DNA of 9,304 bases from positions 1-9,304 of the forward strand of contig JAGGVW010000183.1 in assembly GCA_021157805.1 (NCBI GenBank), given 5' to 3'. Under the pieces are notes generated by a model that did not search any database, had not been told where the DNA came from, and worked only from the letters and a program-made list of their open reading frames with translations. A program made the position numbers and the translations under genes. This DNA is from a bacterium. GTDB lineage: Bacteria > Ratteibacteria > UBA8468 > B48-G9 > JAFGKM01. Shown one piece after another: positions 1 to 8,987 of this stretch (position 1 is the stretch's first letter; every line of letters starts with the position of its first letter).

Positions 1-1
1 G

Positions 2-199
2 GTAATGATTGATTATGATTATAACGGAGAATATTTTGATATGGACGACAAATGGTTTGCTTCTGATTTGGAGAAAAATGATTATGAGATTAGATTTCCT
101 GTAGAAAAATTAACAGATCAAAAGATGATAATTTATATGGATGTTTTTGGAAATGAGAGGAGAGAGATAAAAGGGAAGAAGAATTTTAAGTTGAAGTGA
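2..199 (+). CDS. mod: C-terminal end of a DNA methyltransferase, probably type III Mod (5' truncated by window edge)
   Basis: The reading frame is open to the left edge, so this is the last ~66 codons of a longer gene; the ATG at position 5 is probably internal. The catalytic domain, with its SAM and DPPY-type motifs, is outside the window. The visible tail has an acidic aromatic start (DYDYNGEYF), then FPVEKL and IIYMDVFGNERREI. I recognise this as the pattern ending type III N6-adenine methyltransferases (Mod), where a FPxEKxxxKxMxIYxDxxGNExRE-like strand closes the protein. Type III Mod methylates one strand of an asymmetric site and supplies target recognition for Res. The complete res gene downstream on the same strand supports the call. 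Its stop (197-199) overlaps the GTG start of the STAND gene as GTGA, suggesting translational coupling. The identification rests on a short tail plus context; a different methyltransferase class is possible. Confidence 0.6.
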   Translation, partial: VMIDYDYNGEYFDMDDKWFASDLEKNDYEIRFPVEKLTDQKMIIYMDVFGNERREIKGKKNFKLK

Positions 200-3100
200 A
201 GCGGAGTATGAACACATCTATAAACAAAACTTGGCAGCAAAAACATCTTAAGGATATTAAGCAAAAAGCAGGAGAACGATATACTCCACACTTAAATGTA
301 GATCTTCCAATTGCAGAAATATTTGAAGGGATTAGCCGAACCTCCAAATTTTATGTTGAAATCCAAAAACATTATGGAAATTTAAAAAGAAAGTCCAGAT
401 ACATTTCTAAATTGAGTGATAAAAAATCCCAGAATCTATATAAGAAAATTAAGAAAGGATTGGATACTATATTTGAAATTTTAGTAAAGATAAGAGAATA
501 TGATACTACGAAAATACCATGGGATAAGTTAAACAAAAAATTGCAGGAAGTTGAAAAACTAGTTTTAGACTTGATTGCAGAATTAGAAAATCAAAGATCT
601 AAATTAAAAGAGAATAATAAAAAAGATTCTTTGAAAGAAAAAATAGAAGGAAATATACATTATCTTTTTAAGCTGCGGAAAGAGTTAGATTATTTTATTG
701 GACTTGCTTCAAGTATTAAAGGAAAATTATCAAATCAACCCTTTTTGTTACTTACAGGCGAAGCAGGGATTGGTAAAACTCATTTGTTGTGTGATGTAGT
801 AGAGAATAGAATAAAGGAAGGCTTGCCGGCTGTTTTAGTTTTTGGTGAGTTTTTTAAAAATGGGATTGATGTTTGGCACCAAATTATAGGTCAACTTAAA
901 TTACCTTCAGAAATAAATTCAAAAGGAAAATTTTTAGGTTTGCTAGACGCAGCAGGTTCCATTTCAAAATGCAGAGCTTTACTAATCATAGATGCTTTGA
1001 ACGAATCGGCTCCACCAGCTTTTTGGAAGAAAAATTTAAAAAAAGTGATTCGAGAAATAAAAAAATATAAAAATATTGCGTTGGTTGTTAGTGTACGAAG
1101 TGGGTTTGAACAGGAAGTTTTTACAGAAGAGGTAAAGAAGATATTTATTGAAGAGAAGCATAGAGGGTTTAATTTTAGAGAATGGGAAGCTGTGACAAAA
1201 TTTTTCAGAGAATTTTCTTTACCTCTTCCTGAAGTACCCTTGTTAACTCCTGAATTTCAAAATCCTTTATTTTTGTTTCTTTTTTGTAAGGCTTTAAAAG
1301 AAGGAGAAAAGAATAGAACGAAAAAGAAAAAAGAAATATTCAGAGGACAGGAAGGTTCTACATATATATTTGAAAAATTTGTTGATAATGTAGCTAAAAA
1401 GATAGAAACCAAATTTAATATTCCCCATTCTCCAAAAAAGAATATTTGGGATAAGGTTATTGAGAAAGTCGCTGAAGAAATGATAAACCATAATACGGAT
1501 AGAATAACTCAAGAAAAACTCTTTGAAATTATTAAATCCGCTTACTCGAATATAGAAGTTAATGAATTTATCAAAGAATTGGATAGAAATCTATTACTTG
1601 TAAAAGTCCCTAGATACTCTAAAGATTTTAAAAAAATCGATGGTTATGATTATAAGTTTCCTTTTAATAAATTTAGTGATCACCTAATTATCAGATATCT
1701 CTTAAAAAAGTGTAAATCTGAACACAAAAAACCTGAAGAATTTTTTGAGGAAAATACTCAAATAGCAAATCTGCTAAAATGGAATTACGGACTCGTTGAA
1801 GCATTAGCTATTCAATGTCCTGAGTGGTTTAAGGGAAAAGAGATTTTTGAAGTTGTTCCTTATCTTAAGAGCTCACATTACATATATGACGCTTTCATCG
1901 AAAGTATAATCTGGAGAAAGTCAAGGGCTTTTTCTAAAAAAACTATTAATAAAATTTCATCCTTTCTAAAAAAGAATGTAATGGATTCAGTTTTAAAAGA
2001 AAATGAAAAAAACGAAAGTTATTTTATTTATCCTGAGTTTACTTATAAATTATTGGATGCTTTACTAAGTATTACTTCGGTTCCTGATCATCCTTTAAAT
2101 GCTGAGTTCTTGCATAAACATTTAGAAAACTTTTCAATGCCAAAAAGAGATGCTTGGTGGTCTACTTTTCTTCATTTTCAATATGGGAGAAGAGATTCTG
2201 TCGAAAGAATAATTGAGTGGGCTTGGTCAGATTATGATAAATCACATGTAAATGATACTTCTATTTTCTTAACCTCCACTGCTCTTGCTTGGTTTTTAAC
2301 TACACCAAATAGATTTATCCGTGATAAATCTACAAAAGCATTAGTTTCTTTGCTTCAATATAGGCTACATTTAATTCCAAAACTCTTAGAAAAATTTAAA
2401 AATTTAAATGATATTTATGTATTGGAAAGATTATTTGTTGTGGCTTACGGTTGTGTTTTAAGGAATCAAGACGATTTAGAAAATATTAAGAAAATAGCTA
2501 AATGGACTTATGACAATATTTTCAGAGATGACAAACCACCTGTTCATATACTACTTAGAGACTATGCACGTGGAATAATTGAAGTTGCTCTAAGGAGAAG
2601 TATAAATCTTAAACTTGACAAAACTAAAGTCAATCCACCTTACAAAAGCAATTGGCCAAAACATATTCCATCAGATGATGAAATAAAGAAATATGAATTT
2701 GATTATAATTCTAAAGATTTTAAGAAATATTTTTGGAGTCAAAATTCTATAATTTATTCAATACAACCTGAACATTCTACTATTGGAATGTACGGGGATT
2801 TCGGAAGATATAAATTTCAAAATGCACTTCAAAGGTGGGATACAGGAAAGGTATCAATTCAACAATTAAGTAATTTAGCAGTAGAAATGGTTTTTAAGGA
2901 TTTAGGATATAATGTAGAACTTCATGGAAGATTTGATAGGTATCTGGATTATTATTTTAATCGTGGAAGAGAAGCACATAAACCTGAGAGGATAGGAAAA
3001 AAATATCAGTGGATTGCTTTTCATAAAATTTTAGCACTAGTTTCTGATAAATCCCCTTTAAAGAAAGATTTTTGGGCTAAAGAATATAAGAAATACATTG

Positions 3101-4035
3101 GTCCGTGGGAACCGTATGTGAGAGATATAGATCCTACTTTTCTTATAAGTAACGATGATCACCTAAAAAAGTCTTTATCAATAAACTTGTGGAAGGCAAA
3201 AATACAGAGCTATAATGCTTGGAATGTTGAAAAAAATACTTTAAAGTGGTTAAAAACAAAAAAAGATTTACCAGCCCCCAAACATATTATTCAAATTAAA
3301 GATGACAATAGTCAAGAATGGCTAATATTAGAAGGTTTCATAAAATGGGAAGAGAAAACTCCACCAGAATATGAAAAATATGAAATACCTTTTAGAGAGC
3401 TTTGGTACTGGGTGAAAAGTTATATAGTAAAAAAGGAAGGCCTTGATAAAATTTTTAAATGGAGTAAAGAACAAAACTTTTGGGGCAGATGGATGCCAGA
3501 ATCTCATGAATTTTATGAAATATTTTTAGGAGAATATCCAAACTCAGTAGTGTTTGAAAACTTAAGAAACAATTATAATACTTGGATTGATGAAATTTGG
3601 GGGGAGAACCGATCTTTACCTTCTCCAATCGTTGTTACAGATGATATTTATTTAAATGAGTTCATTTATGACTGCTCCCACGACGGTGCTGTAACTGTTA
3701 AACTACCCTGTAAATGGCTTGTAAATAAATTGAAGATAAAGCAAAAATATGTTGATGGTAGGTGGTTTAATGACAAAGATGAGCTTGTTTGCTTACCGAC
3801 AAAAATATTTGAAGAAAATTTTCTTTCAGCATTGCTTATCAAGAAAAATTTCTTATGCGAATTTTTAAAAGAAAACAATTATGGGATATTTTGGACATTA
3901 TTAGGTGAAAAGAGATTAATTGGAGGTAGATATGCAAACCAAGATTATCAAGGTCATTTAATAATAAATGGAGTTTATAAAATAAATAAAAACCACAATT
4001 TAGAAGGAAATCTTACTGTAAAATTTGAGAAATAA
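196..4035 (+). CDS. Large STAND-type NTPase, Avs-like candidate phage sensor
   Basis: This is a 1279-residue P-loop NTPase of the STAND class. Residues 1-165 are charged and mostly helical, starting with a TWQQKHL segment and containing a probable coiled coil near 115-155. Walker A is GEAGIGKT at 188-195 (Lys194). Walker B is LLIIDALNE with Asp266 and Glu270. A sensor-1-like VSVRSG has Arg301. The remaining ~850 residues lack recognisable catalytic motifs; they look helical in the middle, are Trp-rich around 650-680, and end in a compact region containing FWTLLGEK (1232-1239). A conserved ATPase followed by a long variable C-terminus is the build of Avs-type sensors, which oligomerise on binding a phage protein. 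No N-terminal nuclease, TIR, SIR2 or protease domain is seen. GTG at 196 overlaps the upstream stop by 4 bases; ATG at 208 is an equally possible start. The gene lies between mod and res, 2 bases before res. The NTPase class is secure; the subtype and defence role are inferred. Confidence 0.8.
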   Translation: MKRSMNTSINKTWQQKHLKDIKQKAGERYTPHLNVDLPIAEIFEGISRTSKFYVEIQKHYGNLKRKSRYISKLSDKKSQNLYKKIKKGLDTIFEILVKIREYDTTKIPWDKLNKKLQEVEKLVLDLIAELENQRSKLKENNKKDSLKEKIEGNIHYLFKLRKELDYFIGLASSIKGKLSNQPFLLLTGEAGIGKTHLLCDVVENRIKEGLPAVLVFGEFFKNGIDVWHQIIGQLKLPSEINSKGKFLGLLDAAGSISKCRALLIIDALNESAPPAFWKKNLKKVIREIKKYKNIALVVSVRSGFEQEVFTEEVKKIFIEEKHRGFNFREWEAVTKFFREFSLPLPEVPLLTPEFQNPLFLFLFCKALKEGEKNRTKKKKEIFRGQEGSTYIFEKFVDNVAKKIETKFNIPHSPKKNIWDKVIEKVAEEMINHNTDRITQEKLFEIIKSAYSNIEVNEFIKELDRNLLLVKVPRYSKDFKKIDGYDYKFPFNKFSDHLIIRYLLKKCKSEHKKPEEFFEENTQIANLLKWNYGLVEALAIQCPEWFKGKEIFEVVPYLKSSHYIYDAFIESIIWRKSRAFSKKTINKISSFLKKNVMDSVLKENEKNESYFIYPEFTYKLLDALLSITSVPDHPLNAEFLHKHLENFSMPKRDAWWSTFLHFQYGRRDSVERIIEWAWSDYDKSHVNDTSIFLTSTALAWFLTTPNRFIRDKSTKALVSLLQYRLHLIPKLLEKFKNLNDIYVLERLFVVAYGCVLRNQDDLENIKKIAKWTYDNIFRDDKPPVHILLRDYARGIIEVALRRSINLKLDKTKVNPPYKSNWPKHIPSDDEIKKYEFDYNSKDFKKYFWSQNSIIYSIQPEHSTIGMYGDFGRYKFQNALQRWDTGKVSIQQLSNLAVEMVFKDLGYNVELHGRFDRYLDYYFNRGREAHKPERIGKKYQWIAFHKILALVSDKSPLKKDFWAKEYKKYIGPWEPYVRDIDPTFLISNDDHLKKSLSINLWKAKIQSYNAWNVEKNTLKWLKTKKDLPAPKHIIQIKDDNSQEWLILEGFIKWEEKTPPEYEKYEIPFRELWYWVKSYIVKKEGLDKIFKWSKEQNFWGRWMPESHEFYEIFLGEYPNSVVFENLRNNYNTWIDEIWGENRSLPSPIVVTDDIYLNEFIYDCSHDGAVTVKLPCKWLVNKLKIKQKYVDGRWFNDKDELVCLPTKIFEENFLSALLIKKNFLCEFLKENNYGIFWTLLGEKRLIGGRYANQDYQGHLIINGVYKINKNHNLEGNLTVKFEK

Positions 4036-4037
4036 TC

Positions 4038-6554
4038 ATGCCTGAAATATTTACCATAAAAGCAAGTGATTTAGTTTTAAAAGTATCGGAAAATATAGAT
4101 CCGGCAAGGTTTGATATTTCCAAATATGAAGCGTTTTTGGATGCTTTGTGTGGGACAAGGGAATTTCAAAAAGAGGCTATAAGGACTCTCTTAAGATATC
4201 TTCTGGGTGGGAGATATAGAAATTTAAGAGAGTTAGCAGAGGAAAATTACAATCAAAATCCAAATTTAAGGGAGCTTTATCCCACCTTTTTTGACTTTGA
4301 AAGACACTTACAACTTCCTGATAAACTTTCCTGCACAATAGATTTAGCAACAGGAACGGGTAAAAGTTATGTTTTATATGGAATTGCAAGGATTATGCTT
4401 GCTGAGGGTGTAGTGGATAGGGTTTTGGTACTGGCTCCTTCTACGACTATTGAAAAAGGATTAATAGAAAAATTCAAACAACTATCAGCAGATACAGATT
4501 TATTAAGACTTATCCCAGAAGATGCAAAAATAAGAAATCCAAGAATTATAAATGCTACCGAAACAATCAGAGCAGGTGATATTTGTATTGAGAATATTCA
4601 TGCAGTTTATGAGTATGTTAAATCTTCTGTTCAAGATAGTTTAACCGGTAGAGGTGAAACTACACTTGTCTTAAACGATGAGGTTCACCATGCCTATAAT
4701 CCGCCGGGCAGAGATCAGGCAATAAAGAAATGGAAGGAATTTTTGTTAGATAAGAAATATAATTTTAAATATATAGTTGGAGCAACAGGAACGGCTTATA
4801 TTGGCAATGATTATTTTACCGATGTTGTTTATAGATATTCTTTAAGGCAGGCAATAGAGGAAAGAACAATTAAAACTATAAGGTATGTTGCAGAAGATAG
4901 TCCCGGTGGAGAAGATGAGAAGTTTCAGAAGATTTATGATAACCACTTGGAAAACAAGATGAGATATAGAAAAATAAAGCCTCTTACAATTATTGTTACA
5001 AAAAATATTTCTGCCTGTAAAAGATTAACTGAGAAGTGGATTAGTTTTATTGCTGAAAAAGAAAATATTCCAAAATCTGAAGCTGAGAAAAAAGTTTTAA
5101 TAGTAACATCATCACCTGATCATAAAGAAAATGTATTGAAATTAGATAGAGTGGATGAAAAAGATAATCCTGTGGAGTGGATTACCTCTGTCAGTATGCT
5201 TACAGAAGGATGGGATGTAAAAAATGTTTTCCAGATTGTGCCTCATGAAGAAAGAGCTTTTAACTCAAAACTTCTAATTGCTCAAGTATTGGGTAGAGGA
5301 TTGAGGATACCAGCAGAGTATAAAGGAGAACAACCAGTAGTTACTGTTTTCAATCATGATAATTGGGCAAGAAATATTAAGCACTTGGTAGAAGAGGTAA
5401 TGGAGATCGAAAAAAGATTGTATTCTTATCCCATAGAAAAAGAAAGAGATTCCAATTTTGAGATTTATCAGATTGAGTATAAAAAGAAGGAAATAGAAGA
5501 GGAATTTCCACAGGAAGAGCCTTATGAATTACTTAAGAAAGGATATATAACTTTTTCTTCGCAACTTGAAGGAGTAGAAAAAGAAACAGTTTATGAAAGA
5601 GCTTTAACAGGTGTTAGAGAGAAGAAAGCAACTTATATAACTTATAAAATGTATTCAATAGATGAGGTAGTTCAGGAAATTTGGAATAGATTAAAGGTAT
5701 TTGATGTAGAAGAAGGAACCACTTACTCTAAGGAATTTACAAAGGAAAGAATAAAAGAAATACTTAAGAATTCCTTAGATAAAATTGATTGGAATGAAGA
5801 TACAATAACCGAGGAGAATTACAGAAAGGCATTACAGGCTTTTGGTGTAATTAAGAGGAAAAGAGCAAAAACCTTAAGGTTTGAGATAGAGGCTGAGGAG
5901 TTAAAGAAACTCTCTACTAAGGATTTAAAGAAAACTTCTTTAGGAATTGGTTCTTTTCGTAGAGGAGCTTCTGTATTTTTTGATGAAGATTCTTTGAATA
6001 AAAGTTTGGAAGAGGATATAGCGGTTCTTAAGGAGTTGATAGAAGACGAAACACTTCCCAGAATGGCTATTAAAGAAGTGAGGAACAAATTTAATTTTAA
6101 GACACCTTTAAATGTTGTATTTACCCACTCTGAACCAGAAAGAAAGTTTGTTGAGAAGTTAATAGCCAATGCAGATTTAATTGATGCATGGATAAAATCA
6201 AGAGATACTGGTTTTTATAGTATAGATTATTCATGGAGGAAAGGGGAACATCCAAAGCAGGGAAAATTTAACCCAGATTTCTTTATAAAAGTTGGCAATA
6301 AGATAATAGTAATAGAGATCAAGGAAGATGCTTTAATCAACAAAATAAAGGAAAATGGGGACTTAGGTAAGGAAACAAGAGCTAAATACAGATATGCAGT
6401 AGATCACTTCCAGAGGTTAAACAATTTGCAAAATGAACAGATTTATTATTTCAGTTTTCTAACACCAACAGATTTTGATAATTTCTTTGGGGTATTAAGG
6501 AGAGGTATATTCTCAGGATTTAAATCCAAACTGGATGCCGAATTGGAAAAATGA
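4038..6554 (+). CDS. res: Type III restriction enzyme, Res subunit (SF2 helicase + PD-(D/E)XK nuclease)
   Basis: Res uses ATP-driven movement or diffusion on DNA, guided by Mod, to find paired head-to-head unmethylated sites and cut beside one of them. Its 838 residues are somewhat shorter than EcoP15I-type Res. The helicase motifs are all visible: Walker A ATGTGKS at 104-110, motif II DEVHH at 214-218, motif III GATGT at 248-252, motif V TEGWD at 389-393, and motif VI QVLGRGLR at 416-423. The C-terminus carries a PD-(D/E)XK nuclease with Pro746-Asp747 and Glu760-x-Lys762 (IVIEIKED), so helicase and nuclease both look intact. The ATG at 4038 is 2 bases after the STAND stop, with only a weak purine stretch upstream, so translation is probably coupled. 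Arginine is AGA/AGG at every position I checked except one CGT. No frameshift is seen. The type III assignment rests on the domain order and the adjacent Mod-like tail. Confidence 0.9.
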   Translation: MPEIFTIKASDLVLKVSENIDPARFDISKYEAFLDALCGTREFQKEAIRTLLRYLLGGRYRNLRELAEENYNQNPNLRELYPTFFDFERHLQLPDKLSCTIDLATGTGKSYVLYGIARIMLAEGVVDRVLVLAPSTTIEKGLIEKFKQLSADTDLLRLIPEDAKIRNPRIINATETIRAGDICIENIHAVYEYVKSSVQDSLTGRGETTLVLNDEVHHAYNPPGRDQAIKKWKEFLLDKKYNFKYIVGATGTAYIGNDYFTDVVYRYSLRQAIEERTIKTIRYVAEDSPGGEDEKFQKIYDNHLENKMRYRKIKPLTIIVTKNISACKRLTEKWISFIAEKENIPKSEAEKKVLIVTSSPDHKENVLKLDRVDEKDNPVEWITSVSMLTEGWDVKNVFQIVPHEERAFNSKLLIAQVLGRGLRIPAEYKGEQPVVTVFNHDNWARNIKHLVEEVMEIEKRLYSYPIEKERDSNFEIYQIEYKKKEIEEEFPQEEPYELLKKGYITFSSQLEGVEKETVYERALTGVREKKATYITYKMYSIDEVVQEIWNRLKVFDVEEGTTYSKEFTKERIKEILKNSLDKIDWNEDTITEENYRKALQAFGVIKRKRAKTLRFEIEAEELKKLSTKDLKKTSLGIGSFRRGASVFFDEDSLNKSLEEDIAVLKELIEDETLPRMAIKEVRNKFNFKTPLNVVFTHSEPERKFVEKLIANADLIDAWIKSRDTGFYSIDYSWRKGEHPKQGKFNPDFFIKVGNKIIVIEIKEDALINKIKENGDLGKETRAKYRYAVDHFQRLNNLQNEQIYYFSFLTPTDFDNFFGVLRRGIFSGFKSKLDAELEK

Positions 6555-6620: not shown

Positions 6621-7352
6621 ATGTCTCAAAATGCAAGAATATTAGCATATAAAATAAAAGAGATTGCGGACATAAATCTTGTGGCCCGTCCCTTTAACCG
6701 TTTTAACCCAGATAAAACGATATGGTGGTTAATTCCCTCTAACGAATGGCCGGCTTATAAATACGGAAAGATTTTTTGTGATTTACAAAAGGAACCGAAC
6801 TTTCCCCACGAAGAGAAGTTATACTGTGGGTTTTATGTAGAGAAAGGTTTGGGAGAAATTACACGAAATGTGTTCCATCCTTCTTTAATAATGGATAGCA
6901 GTTGGTTATGGAACGATTTTTATGAGGATTGCTTAAATTATAGAATTTCTCCTTCACTTTTTCAAAATAAAATTCTTACTCTCCAGATTGGGTATATCTC
7001 CCCCGAAAAAGGAGAGTATATTAAACAACCAGAGGAGTTCGACTTAATAAAGAACAACTCTCAAGTAATTCGACCTACCTTTTTATGCACAAAAGAATAC
7101 AAATTAATATTGCTTGATCAAAAAATTGATCCTACACATAACCTTAAATTTAATTTAGATGAAAAAATCTCTCATGCCCAGCAATTTTTAGATTTACTTG
7201 CAAATATCAAAAAAATACCTGACATTGATTGGTTGTGGGTAGATTTATATATTGGTAAATTCATTCCCGCTGATTTGACAAGCATTTCTTTAACTGAATT
7301 ATGGGAAAAAGAACTCGCTCCTTGGAAGCCGTGGTTGCGGAAAGCTAAATAA
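6621..7352 (+). CDS. Hypothetical protein, aromatic-rich, 243 aa, unknown function
   Basis: I do not recognise this protein. It looks soluble, with no signal peptide, membrane segment, Cys cluster or P-loop. It is unusually rich in Trp, Tyr and Phe. A tryptophan-rich segment (IWWLIPSNEWP) lies at about 34-44, a second aromatic run (SSWLWNDFYEDC) sits near the middle, and DWLWVDLYIGKFIP lies at about 203-216, followed by a Trp-containing tail. This pattern suggests a globular alpha/beta fold with a binding surface, but no family can be named. The ATG at 6621 follows an A/T stretch without a Shine-Dalgarno motif. The gene begins 66 bases after res and ends 16 bases before the zinc-ribbon gene. 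By my count five of its seven arginines are CGN, unlike the AGA/AGG-dominated res gene, which hints at a separate origin. A defence accessory role is guessed from position only. Confidence 0.75.
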   Translation: MSQNARILAYKIKEIADINLVARPFNRFNPDKTIWWLIPSNEWPAYKYGKIFCDLQKEPNFPHEEKLYCGFYVEKGLGEITRNVFHPSLIMDSSWLWNDFYEDCLNYRISPSLFQNKILTLQIGYISPEKGEYIKQPEEFDLIKNNSQVIRPTFLCTKEYKLILLDQKIDPTHNLKFNLDEKISHAQQFLDLLANIKKIPDIDWLWVDLYIGKFIPADLTSISLTELWEKELAPWKPWLRKAK

Positions 7353-7368
7353 ATTATTTTAAATTTTT

Positions 7369-8100
7369 ATGGTTTTTAATGATTTTTTGCGAAAAATTAT
7401 TTCTAATAAGCCTAAATGTCCTTATTGTCATAGGGAACTTCCAAAATTTCCTTTACGTAAATCAAAATGTCCTTATTGTAAAGAAGTGATATTTATCAAA
7501 AGAAGACCTTCTTCGAAGAGAAAAATTCTTGTTACAAAAGAAGAGGCTGAAAAGATAGAAAAAGAATGGGAAGAGGTTTACTTTAGGGAAAGACTTAGAG
7601 ATGATTTTGGGCAAATGGGATTCTCTGAAAAAGATTATTATAGAGCTAGAAGAATATTAAAAAGAAAATTTGGCATCTCTCCCTCGTATAGTGATATTTA
7701 TTGGTATATTTCGAATTTATTTCTTGAAAAAGCAGCCAAGAAAAAAGATTTAGAAGCAATGAGACAAATTTATTTTCGTCAAGCTCTTTTTCTTCATGAA
7801 GAAGGAAAGGATTGTTTTTTAGCTCTTCAAATGAGCCAAAAATGTGAATTGTTACAATACCAACAACAGGGGATTAAGAAAGTGCGAATTTCTACAACAG
7901 GAGATAGGGCATGTGAGAATTGTAAATTACTTGAAGGTAAAGTTTTTTCCATCGAGGAAGCTCTAGAAAAAATGCCTCTCCCCGTTAAAAATTGTTTGCA
8001 TAAGTTAAACCCAGATGCTCCTACTGGATGGTGCCGATGCTTATATGAGCCGGTATTAGAAAATGAAGAACTATTTAAGGAATTCTGGAAAAATTCATAA
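7369..8100 (+). CDS. Zinc-ribbon protein with C-terminal phage Mu gpF / SPP1 gp7-like Cys-His module
   Basis: Residues 17-37 form an N-terminal zinc ribbon, CPYC-x13-CPYC, with a basic stretch after it. A long charged, mostly helical middle (about 55-165) follows. The C-terminus carries a second metal-binding pattern: Cys182 and Cys185 (CENC), then Cys209-x-His211, then Cys222-Arg-Cys224 (CRC), preceded by STTGDRA. The order D-x-x-C-x-x-C ... H ... CRC is the signature I know from the end of phage Mu gpF / SPP1 gp7-like head morphogenesis proteins. The portal-associated and other head genes expected around a phage gpF are absent, and the protein is short. It is more likely a domesticated or accessory protein than a working capsid gene. 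The ATG at 7369 is 16 bases after the previous stop, with an A/T-rich upstream region and no Shine-Dalgarno motif. The zinc sites are clear; the function is unknown. Confidence 0.8.
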   Translation: MVFNDFLRKIISNKPKCPYCHRELPKFPLRKSKCPYCKEVIFIKRRPSSKRKILVTKEEAEKIEKEWEEVYFRERLRDDFGQMGFSEKDYYRARRILKRKFGISPSYSDIYWYISNLFLEKAAKKKDLEAMRQIYFRQALFLHEEGKDCFLALQMSQKCELLQYQQQGIKKVRISTTGDRACENCKLLEGKVFSIEEALEKMPLPVKNCLHKLNPDAPTGWCRCLYEPVLENEELFKEFWKNS

Positions 8101-8435: not shown

Positions 8436-8987
8436 ATGAAGAGATTAAAATTACAATTTTCAAAGAGTATTCATGGAGAATATGTAGAACTACTAGAAGC
8501 TATTTTAGATAATGCAATTAAACTGAAAAAAGCAAGTGCACAAATGTTAAAGAGAAAAGAATTGAGGCCATTTTATCAGTTTCTATTATTTACTGCAATA
8601 GAAGAATGCGGGAAATTTTTATTGGTGAAAGATTCTTATCCTAGAAAACTAACAAAGTCTTTATTAATAGAAATAGGCTTTTATGATCACAAAAAGAAGA
8701 TACGAAGAGTAGTAAAGAATCTGGAATTAGAATATGGGGAAATTAATCCCACAAAACTAAGTTTAGAAAGCAAGATGATAGACAATTTAAAAAGAAACTT
8801 AAGAGAAAATTCTTTATATATTGATTACGATGAAAAAAATAGAAAACCTGTTTCTCCGACATTTATTACCTCCGCCAAAGCTTTACAAGACACAGTGATA
8901 ATAATTGAGAATTTAATAAAATTTTGCTATTTAAAACTTGCAGAATTTAAGAAAACTCCTATTTTAAAGCATTATAAATTTACATAA
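8436..8987 (+). CDS. abiV: AbiV-family (HEPN-like) abortive infection protein
   Basis: This 183-residue, mostly helical protein carries the AbiV hallmarks. A first helix pair is followed by AIEECGK at 54-60 (the family's A-x-E-E-x-G-K). DHKKK at 84-88 corresponds to its F-x-DHKxK segment, and LRENSLYIDYD at 122-132 to its R-E-x-x-LYVD motif. The length suits the family. In Lactococcus, AbiV aborts phage infection by shutting down translation and interacts with the phage protein SaV; whether this homologue acts likewise is unknown. A canonical HEPN R-x4-6-H motif is not evident, so RNase activity should not be assumed. The ATG at 8436 has no Shine-Dalgarno motif, and the bases just before it form the right arm of a long-range inverted repeat, suggesting leader control. 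It lies 335 bases after the zinc-ribbon gene and is followed by a terminator at 9055, so it is probably its own transcription unit. Confidence 0.75.
   Translation: MKRLKLQFSKSIHGEYVELLEAILDNAIKLKKASAQMLKRKELRPFYQFLLFTAIEECGKFLLVKDSYPRKLTKSLLIEIGFYDHKKKIRRVVKNLELEYGEINPTKLSLESKMIDNLKRNLRENSLYIDYDEKNRKPVSPTFITSAKALQDTVIIIENLIKFCYLKLAEFKKTPILKHYKFT

What the first reader, a model, noticed from the sequence alone, without database searches (positions are those of the whole stretch)
2..6554. STAND NTPase gene embedded between type III mod and res
Type III mod and res are normally adjacent and co-transcribed. Here a 3.8-kb STAND NTPase gene sits between them with a 4-base overlap on one side and a 2-base gap on the other, which argues for one co-translated operon rather than a chance insertion. 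The NTPase could be a phage sensor that licenses or activates the restriction complex, or a backup triggered when restriction fails or is inhibited. The junctions are seen directly; the functional link is inference.
Basis: partly seen in the sequence, partly recalled or inferred. Interest (0 to 1): 0.7.

Follow-up and report, generated by a model that had tools for sequence, protein, structure and literature searches.

The report
Effectorless Avs2 inside type III restriction operon
A phage-sensor gene that lacks the DNA-cutting part its relatives carry sits as an inserted cassette between the two genes of a restriction-modification system, at a spot where related systems carry other, unrelated genes or nothing at all.

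Summary
A type III mod C-terminus (2-199), a 1279-aa STAND gene (196-4035) and a type III-like res (4038-6554) run head to tail. The STAND protein matches Avs2 but has about 15 residues where E. coli Avs2 carries its N-terminal effector; it falls in a supported clade with 129 of 132 short members.

The triad did not recur: 0 of 89 Avs2 loci had this Res within three ORFs. The closest restriction relative with readable context (Res 86% identical over 547 residues) has mod and res overlapping, with the window's flanks 38 bp apart, so Avs2 is a 3.9-kb cassette. The junction is reused: in this Res clade 4 of 6 assessable loci carry intervening genes, each different (Avs2; Ppl-like ATPase plus Schlafen AlbA; HNH protein; 145-aa gene plus DUF4145 protein). 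Outside the clade it is 1 of 18.

Best reading: a type III counterpart of the cargo sites known inside type I restriction operons, here loaded with an effectorless Avs2. Co-expression with restriction is likely. Direct wiring to Res (licensing, guarding, shared nuclease) is untested and not needed.

The parts
2..199 (+). C-terminal 65 aa of a type III DNA methyltransferase gene (mod), cut by the window's left edge
   Evidence: Matches the C-terminal ends of genes next to Res relatives: E=3e-8 in L090, 57% in L139, 69% in L184. Those of L090 and L139 carry PF01555
196..4035 (+). Avs2-like STAND NTPase, 1279 aa (GTG196; alternative ATG208), without the N-terminal effector domain
   Evidence: NF041813 1157 bits v cut-off 1000; PADLOC Avs2 1204 bits; query residue 16 aligns to residue 173 of EcAvs2 9o4e; Walker A 188-195, IIDALNE 264-270
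159..4030 (+). Stretch absent from relative L184 by blastn: window 1-158 and 4031-6374 align to L184 10620-10777 and 10816-13164, 38 bases apart. At protein level the mod match runs on to residue 62 of 65 (about base 187), so the real left edge is probably nearer the mod stop at 199
   Evidence: blastn, 80% and 77% identity; protein match
4038..6554 (+). Type III-like restriction subunit Res, 838 aa: helicase plus C-terminal PD-(D/E)XK-like motif
   Evidence: PF04851 57.7 bits; PADLOC REase_III 44 bits; ATGTGKS 104, NDEVHH 213, QVLGRGLR 416, FNPDF 744, EIK 760, largely invariant in 16 relatives
6621..7352 (+). Orphan 243-aa gene 66 bases downstream; membership of the operon uncertain
   Evidence: No Pfam, PADLOC, NCBIfam or PHROG match at E 0.1; 11 proteins at E 0.001, one of them its own sequence
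8436..8987 (+). AbiV-family HEPN abortive-infection gene, part of the surrounding defence island
   Evidence: PF18728 50.3 bits v cut-off 27.1; TIGR04498 43.4 bits v 27

Best explanation
[quoted passage not shown] In this window it is loaded with an effectorless Avs2. Shown: the extra stretch and its position, a relative without it, non-homologous genes at the junction in three other clade members, and absence of the N-terminal effector in nearly the whole Avs2 clade (129 of 132). Inferred: the three genes are read from one mod-driven transcript, so restriction (first layer, acting on unmodified DNA) and a phage-protein sensor (second layer) are expressed and transferred together. The Avs2 core would bind a phage protein (terminase large subunit, by analogy with EcAvs2, recalled), oligomerise through its NTPase domain, and act through a partner or by sequestering its target, since it has no recognisable nuclease of its own. 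No dedicated contact with Res is required.
For: 1) Site without Avs2: L184 (Res 86% over its first 547 residues, Mod tail 69%) has mod and res overlapping by 8 bases. Window 1-158 and 4031-6374 align to L184 10620-10777 and 10816-13164, so 3,872 window bases stand where L184 has 38. 2) Different genes at the same junction in the Res clade (support 1.0; 128 leaves): L139 Mod / Ppl-like PHP-SMC ATPase / Schlafen AlbA_2 / Res, gaps -4, 9, -4; L147 Mod / HNH 537 aa / Res, gaps 10, 2; L152 Mod / 145 aa / DUF4145 262 aa / Res, gaps 106, 12, 8. 3) Tally: 4 of 6 inside (window included) against 1 of 18 outside, Fisher p=0.006; without the window 3 of 5, p=0.021. 4) Same-strand junctions, tight except the 106 bases in L152. 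5) Effectorless clade: 129 of 132 members have 40 or fewer residues before query position 16, support 1.0 (some may be truncated). The model of residues 1-180 is all helical. [quoted passage not shown]
Against: Two of six assessable clade members are empty (L184, L185), the nearest one among them. The sample is small, the loci are related, and most are drafts: mod is broken in two loaded loci (L147, L152), res is cut in L147 and broken in L184. The inserted genes are not all proven defence genes (145-aa gene, DUF4145 and HNH by domain at best). Whether Avs2 was gained in the window or lost in L184 was not tested. Co-transcription was not measured. Terminase sensing and trans action are analogies. 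The contexts of the 59-93% Avs2 relatives and of the 120 listed Res relatives could not be read.
Confidence: 0.6

Rival explanations
1. Avs2 is the sensor and Res the effector: without its own nuclease, the oligomerised Avs2 recruits or unleashes the Res helicase-nuclease (alone or with Mod) on DNA when a phage protein is bound, turning sequence-specific restriction into infection-triggered cleavage.
For: Effector missing at the N-terminus; an intact-looking helicase-nuclease is encoded 2 bases downstream; another member of the same 13-member Avs2 subclade (G058, 57-63%, in two pieces around a run of N) lies downstream of a DNA methylase and a 355-aa gene without a Pfam match; effectorless Avs2 L032 lies beside a divergent type I HsdM-HsdR pair.
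Against: Of 11 effectorless genome loci inspected none has this Mod or Res next to it; L072 has a methylase three ORFs away and L032 a type I pair (the output of 34 was cut, and other neighbours were not scanned against family libraries except one in L001). The relative L184 has mod-res without Avs2. Unrelated genes occupy the same site.
Confidence: 0.15
2. The inserted genes are restriction guardians, like PrrC in EcoprrI: they are held silent by the restriction complex and fire when a phage anti-restriction protein inhibits it.
For: Position inside the restriction operon; the PrrC precedent (PMC12707154, passages); would explain why very different genes share one site.
Against: The inserted genes share no Pfam family in the hits obtained, apart from generic AAA/P-loop hits of the two ATPases; no interaction test was made. 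Effectorless Avs2 homologues without this restriction pair suggest an independent trigger; nothing shows activation by inhibition.
Confidence: 0.13
3. Neutral hitchhiking: Avs2 landed by chance where transcription and dispensable spacing allow insertion, and persists as a stand-alone gene with no functional relation to restriction.
For: Empty sites in the clade (L184, L185); the window has AbiV nearby, as in a defence island where unrelated systems cluster.
Against: Occupancy is higher in this clade (4 of 6 v 1 of 18); most junctions are tight; Avs2, Ppl-like and Schlafen AlbA genes are defence-type by family.
Confidence: 0.12

Closest known systems
Avs2 / AVAST type II (EcAvs2, PDB 9o4e; NCBIfam NF041813)
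   Same: STAND NTPase core and C-terminal sensor region align in two stretches (query 16-847 and 901-1263); passes NF041813's cut-off
   Different: The ~160-residue N-terminal region of EcAvs2 (its effector, recalled) is absent; a ~100-residue insert around query 835-905, which 94 of the 132 clade members carry, is absent too
darTG2 between hsdS and hsdR in a type I restriction island (RRDM; PMC12255303)
   Same: Defence genes inserted between specificity and restriction genes of one operon; the authors call the site a potential recombination hotspot
   Different: Type I system with a toxin-antitoxin pair; here type III mod-res with a STAND sensor and, in relatives, other genes
PrrC in the EcoprrI type IC locus (PMC12707154, passages)
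   Same: Accessory gene embedded in a restriction locus
   Different: PrrC is an anticodon nuclease activated when its restriction enzyme is inhibited; no nuclease is recognisable in this Avs2 and no such control is known
Type III systems with a third gene (PMC8259958, passages)
   Same: Third ATPase gene associated with mod and res
   Different: There a conserved helicase-like ATPase lies 5' of mod; here the extra genes are between mod and res and differ from locus to locus

Membership tests
Avs2 (AVAST type II) | Score above the curated NF041813 cut-off | tested here: met
   1156.7 v 1000 bits
Avs2 (AVAST type II) | STAND/NACHT NTPase with Walker A and B | tested here: met
Avs2 (AVAST type II) | N-terminal effector domain | tested here: not met
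   Query residue 16 aligns to residue 173 of 9o4e; an in-frame stop at 187 and the mod gene leave no room. Filed therefore as an effectorless Avs2-like protein, not as canonical Avs2
Avs2 (AVAST type II) | C-terminal sensor that binds a phage protein | tested here: inconclusive
   Region aligns (178 bits); binding not testable here
Type III restriction-modification | Mod with N6/N4 methylase domain | tested here: inconclusive
   Only the C-terminal 65 aa lie in the window; they match genes of which those of L090, L139 and L152 carry PF01555
Type III restriction-modification | Res with helicase and endonuclease | tested here: met
   PF04851 57.7 bits; helicase and FNPDF...EIK motifs largely invariant in 16 relatives. 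Activity not tested; the AlphaFold model of Res was poor (pLDDT 52.5)
Type III restriction-modification | mod and res adjacent | tested here: not met
   3.8-kb gene between them; adjacent in L184, L185 and 17 of 18 loci outside the clade. Adjacency is usual rather than defining
PrrC-type restriction guardian | Activation when the restriction enzyme is inhibited | not testable with these tools
   Needs phage and inhibitor assays

The most novel reading that the evidence does not exclude
A clade of type III restriction operons carries an exchangeable module slot between mod and res, and effectorless Avs2 proteins are sensors that borrow a trans nuclease. In this operon the partner is Res itself, so phage-protein sensing switches a restriction enzyme on.
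Probability: 0.13. Interest if true: 0.85.

Novelty: new variant of a known kind. Interest (0 to 1): 0.5.

Why it matters
Cargo sites inside type I restriction operons are known; one between mod and res of type III systems was not found in the papers searched (listings of an open-access library). If general, the site is a simple guide for finding new defence genes: read what lies between mod and res in this clade. The large effectorless Avs2 clade poses a question that can be tested now: how does a pattern-recognition NTPase protect without its own nuclease?

Tried and rejected
Fixed mod-Avs2-res system: rejected for the sample available (0 of 89 Avs2 loci with this Res within three ORFs; relative L184 without Avs2). 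One of the 89, L072, has a DPPY-motif methylase three ORFs away. The 89 are 25-53% identical and several sit on short contigs. Of 73 plasmid records with an Avs2 match (all under 60%) I opened two; neither shows mod or res nearby. Of the four WOR-3-phylum genomes with Avs2 matches, those in G016 and G084 have no Mod/Res beside them.

My own first reading, that every assessable member of the Res clade carries cargo (4 of 4 until), was overturned by the last genome search: L184 and L185 are empty. I give the final 4 of 6.

Contig-length matching between the two protein lists, as a proxy for co-occurrence, gave no shared length (120 v 120); uninformative.

Structure of Res: pLDDT 52.5, not used. 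Structure of Avs2 residues 1-1199: usable to about residue 950. Foldseek lists mainly Cdc6/ORC chains, with Avs4 at ranks 3-4; the VIA second look adds NLR NACHT domains, Avs3 and AVAST5. 9o4e is not among the rows shown in either.

Phage DNA similarity by megablast: none. Viral contigs: 9 Avs2 loci and 2 Res loci, none with the triad. Rfam: none. tRNA: none. Promoter and terminator counts are no more than in shuffles.

In one search, 29 of 147 genomes matched Res, but I followed only the three strong matches and one C-terminal fragment; later phylum and class searches used E 1e-60. The 14 genomes searched by handle gave no strong match. Rows dropped before the final tally: L176 (same Mod as L090), L146 (order res-mod), L138, L167, L159, L164, L168 (mod not visible) and L141 (72-aa Res fragment). 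L138 has a 488-aa AAA_14/DUF4143 ATPase 12 bases before Res, so it could be another loaded site.

Full report
WHAT IS THERE. The genes of interest lie on the + strand. The first is cut by the left edge. Its 65 residues match the extreme C-terminus of genes next to relatives of the window's Res: 32% and E=3e-8 in viral contig L090, 57% in L139, 69% in L184. Those of L090, L139 and L152 carry the N6_N4_Mtase domain. The 838-aa gene at 4038-6554 is a type III-like Res (PF04851 57.7 bits; PADLOC REase_III 44 bits) with helicase and nuclease-like motifs largely invariant in 16 relatives of 63-95% identity. Between them lies a 1279-aa STAND gene. The avs2-res gap is 2 bases. The mod-avs2 overlap of 4 bases holds if GTG196 is used; three of the five nearest full-length relatives begin within a residue of ATG208, which gives a gap of 8, and one begins where GTG196 would.

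WHAT THE STAND GENE IS. It matches Avs2 in NCBIfam (1157 bits, cut-off 1000), PADLOC (1204 bits) and PDB 9o4e (566 bits). In 9o4e the match begins at residue 173, in the window at residue 16, and the reading frame is closed by a stop at 187 inside mod. So the effector domain is missing. The predicted structure of residues 1-180 is a set of helices. This is not a local truncation. Of the 120 best homologues (of 1273), 116 have 6-28 residues before the same point, 2 are fragments that start inside it, and 2 are longer (81 and 144). In a tree of 207 proteins a clade with support 1.0 holds 132 members: 129 short, one long (P0059, whose extension has only a sub-threshold ASCH hit) and two counted as neither (P0058 and the G058 piece are the only such leaves in the tree). 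A few short members may be truncated genes. Short members among the genome loci bear titles from Patescibacteria groups, archaea, Neomarinimicrobiota and Bdellovibrionales, among others. Eleven effectorless genome loci were inspected. None has this Mod/Res pair next to it; L032 has a divergent type I HsdM-HsdR pair, and L072 a methylase three ORFs away. In the phylum of a WOR-3 bacterium, 4 of 147 genomes have an Avs2 match. One of them, G058, carries an Avs2 of 57-63% identity in two pieces around a run of N, downstream of a DNA methylase and a 355-aa gene with no Pfam match.

DOES THE TRIAD RECUR? Not in what could be read. Of 80 genome and 9 viral Avs2 loci, 0 of 89 have this Res family within three ORFs; some loci end sooner. 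The closest Avs2 relatives (59-93%) are mostly metagenomic proteins whose surroundings the tools do not give.

WHAT RECURS IS THE SITE. I collected relatives of Res from viral contigs (2), plasmids (3 of 51 records cover at least 80% of the query) and genome sets: 147 of the phylum of G003 (WOR-3), 39 of the phylum of G006, 246 of the phylum of G004, 198 of the phylum of G158 and 230 of the class of G613 (overlapping), 239 of the phylum of G153, 11 of the class of G234, 348 of the phylum of G154 and 369 of the phylum of G001. A Res tree places the window, all 120 listed homologues, L138, L139, L147, L152, L167, L184 and L185 in one clade with support 1.0. Among clade members with both genes visible, four are loaded and two empty. 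The loaded ones are the window (Avs2); L139 (924-aa PHP/SMC ATPase, PADLOC Ppl 184 bits, plus a 387-aa Schlafen AlbA_2 protein); L147 (537-aa HNH protein); and L152 (145-aa gene plus a 262-aa DUF4145 protein). L184 and L185 are empty. Outside the clade, 17 of 18 distinct mod-res loci are adjacent and one, L158, has a 260-aa gene of no Pfam family between. Fisher p=0.006, or 0.021 without the window. The loci are related and few, so these p-values are indicative only.

THE SITE WITHOUT AVS2. L184 is the closest relative with readable context (Res 86% in its first 547 residues; its res is broken and runs off the contig). Its mod and res overlap by 8 bases. Window 1-158 aligns to L184 10620-10777 at 80% and window 4031-6374 to 10816-13164 at 77%. 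The window thus has 3,872 bases where L184 has 38. The right boundary falls seven bases before the res start codon. On the left the DNA match stops at 158 but the protein match runs to residue 62 of 65, so the break is probably close to the mod stop. In the window the string before res (TAATCATG) is the same as that between mod and res in L154; one short match could be coincidence. Gain in the window or loss in L184 was not distinguished.

HOW IT MOST LIKELY WORKS. Restriction and an Avs2 sensor are delivered from one operon. Restriction meets unmodified DNA first; Avs2 would respond to a phage protein made later (terminase, by analogy with EcAvs2; recalled, not tested). Because no nuclease is recognisable, the sensor needs a partner or works by sequestration. 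Res is the nearest candidate partner, but the effectorless Avs2 loci inspected have no such neighbour, so I give the Res-as-effector model 0.15 and the guardian model 0.13.

COMPARISON. Inserted defence genes inside restriction operons are known for type I: darTG2 between hsdS and hsdR, described as a potential recombination hotspot (PMC12255303, abstract and passages), and prrC in EcoprrI (PMC12707154, passages). A third ATPase gene 5' of mod is known for some type III systems (PMC8259958, passages). I found no paper describing genes between mod and res or Avs2 in a type III operon (listings, open-access library only). Hence: new variant of a known kind.

LIMITS. Mod is seen only in its last 65 residues in this window, so its activity is unknown. 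Most relatives are unnamed draft genomes. Transcription, sensing and protection are untested.

Noticed in passing
window 8436-8987: AbiV-family HEPN abortive-infection gene downstream of the restriction operon, so the locus looks like a small defence island.
   Followed up: partly
window 7369-8100: Protein with cysteine pairs near its start and a C-terminal stretch (about 155-235) like phage minor head / Mu F proteins (PHROG 595 and 115; Pfam and NCBIfam matches below cut-off).
   Followed up: no
window 6621-7352: Orphan 243-aa gene with 11 proteins at E 0.001 among 5.8 billion, one its own sequence, 66 bases after res.
   Followed up: partly
L100 4915-12166: In genome G058 a methylase / 355-aa gene / Avs2 block lies between two ORFs that begin alike (by eye); the 143-aa one is a pyrimidine-dimer glycosylase. 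The block may have inserted with duplication of part of that gene.
   Followed up: no
L138 6772-8238: 488-aa AAA_14/DUF4143 ATPase (PADLOC PDC-S01) 12 bases before a 71%-identical Res; mod is not on the contig, so it may be another loaded site.
   Followed up: partly
P0059: Single long member of the effectorless Avs2 clade, 144-residue N-terminal extension, sub-threshold ASCH match: possibly a re-acquired domain.
   Followed up: no
L001 3591-4703: 370-aa gene with a sub-threshold NucS C-terminal nuclease match (21.6 v 24 bits) on the same strand about 500 bases upstream of an effectorless Avs2; a possible trans nuclease.
   Followed up: no
L153 4941-7358: IetS-like subtilase (PADLOC, 403 bits) upstream of an adjacent mod-res pair.
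   Followed up: no
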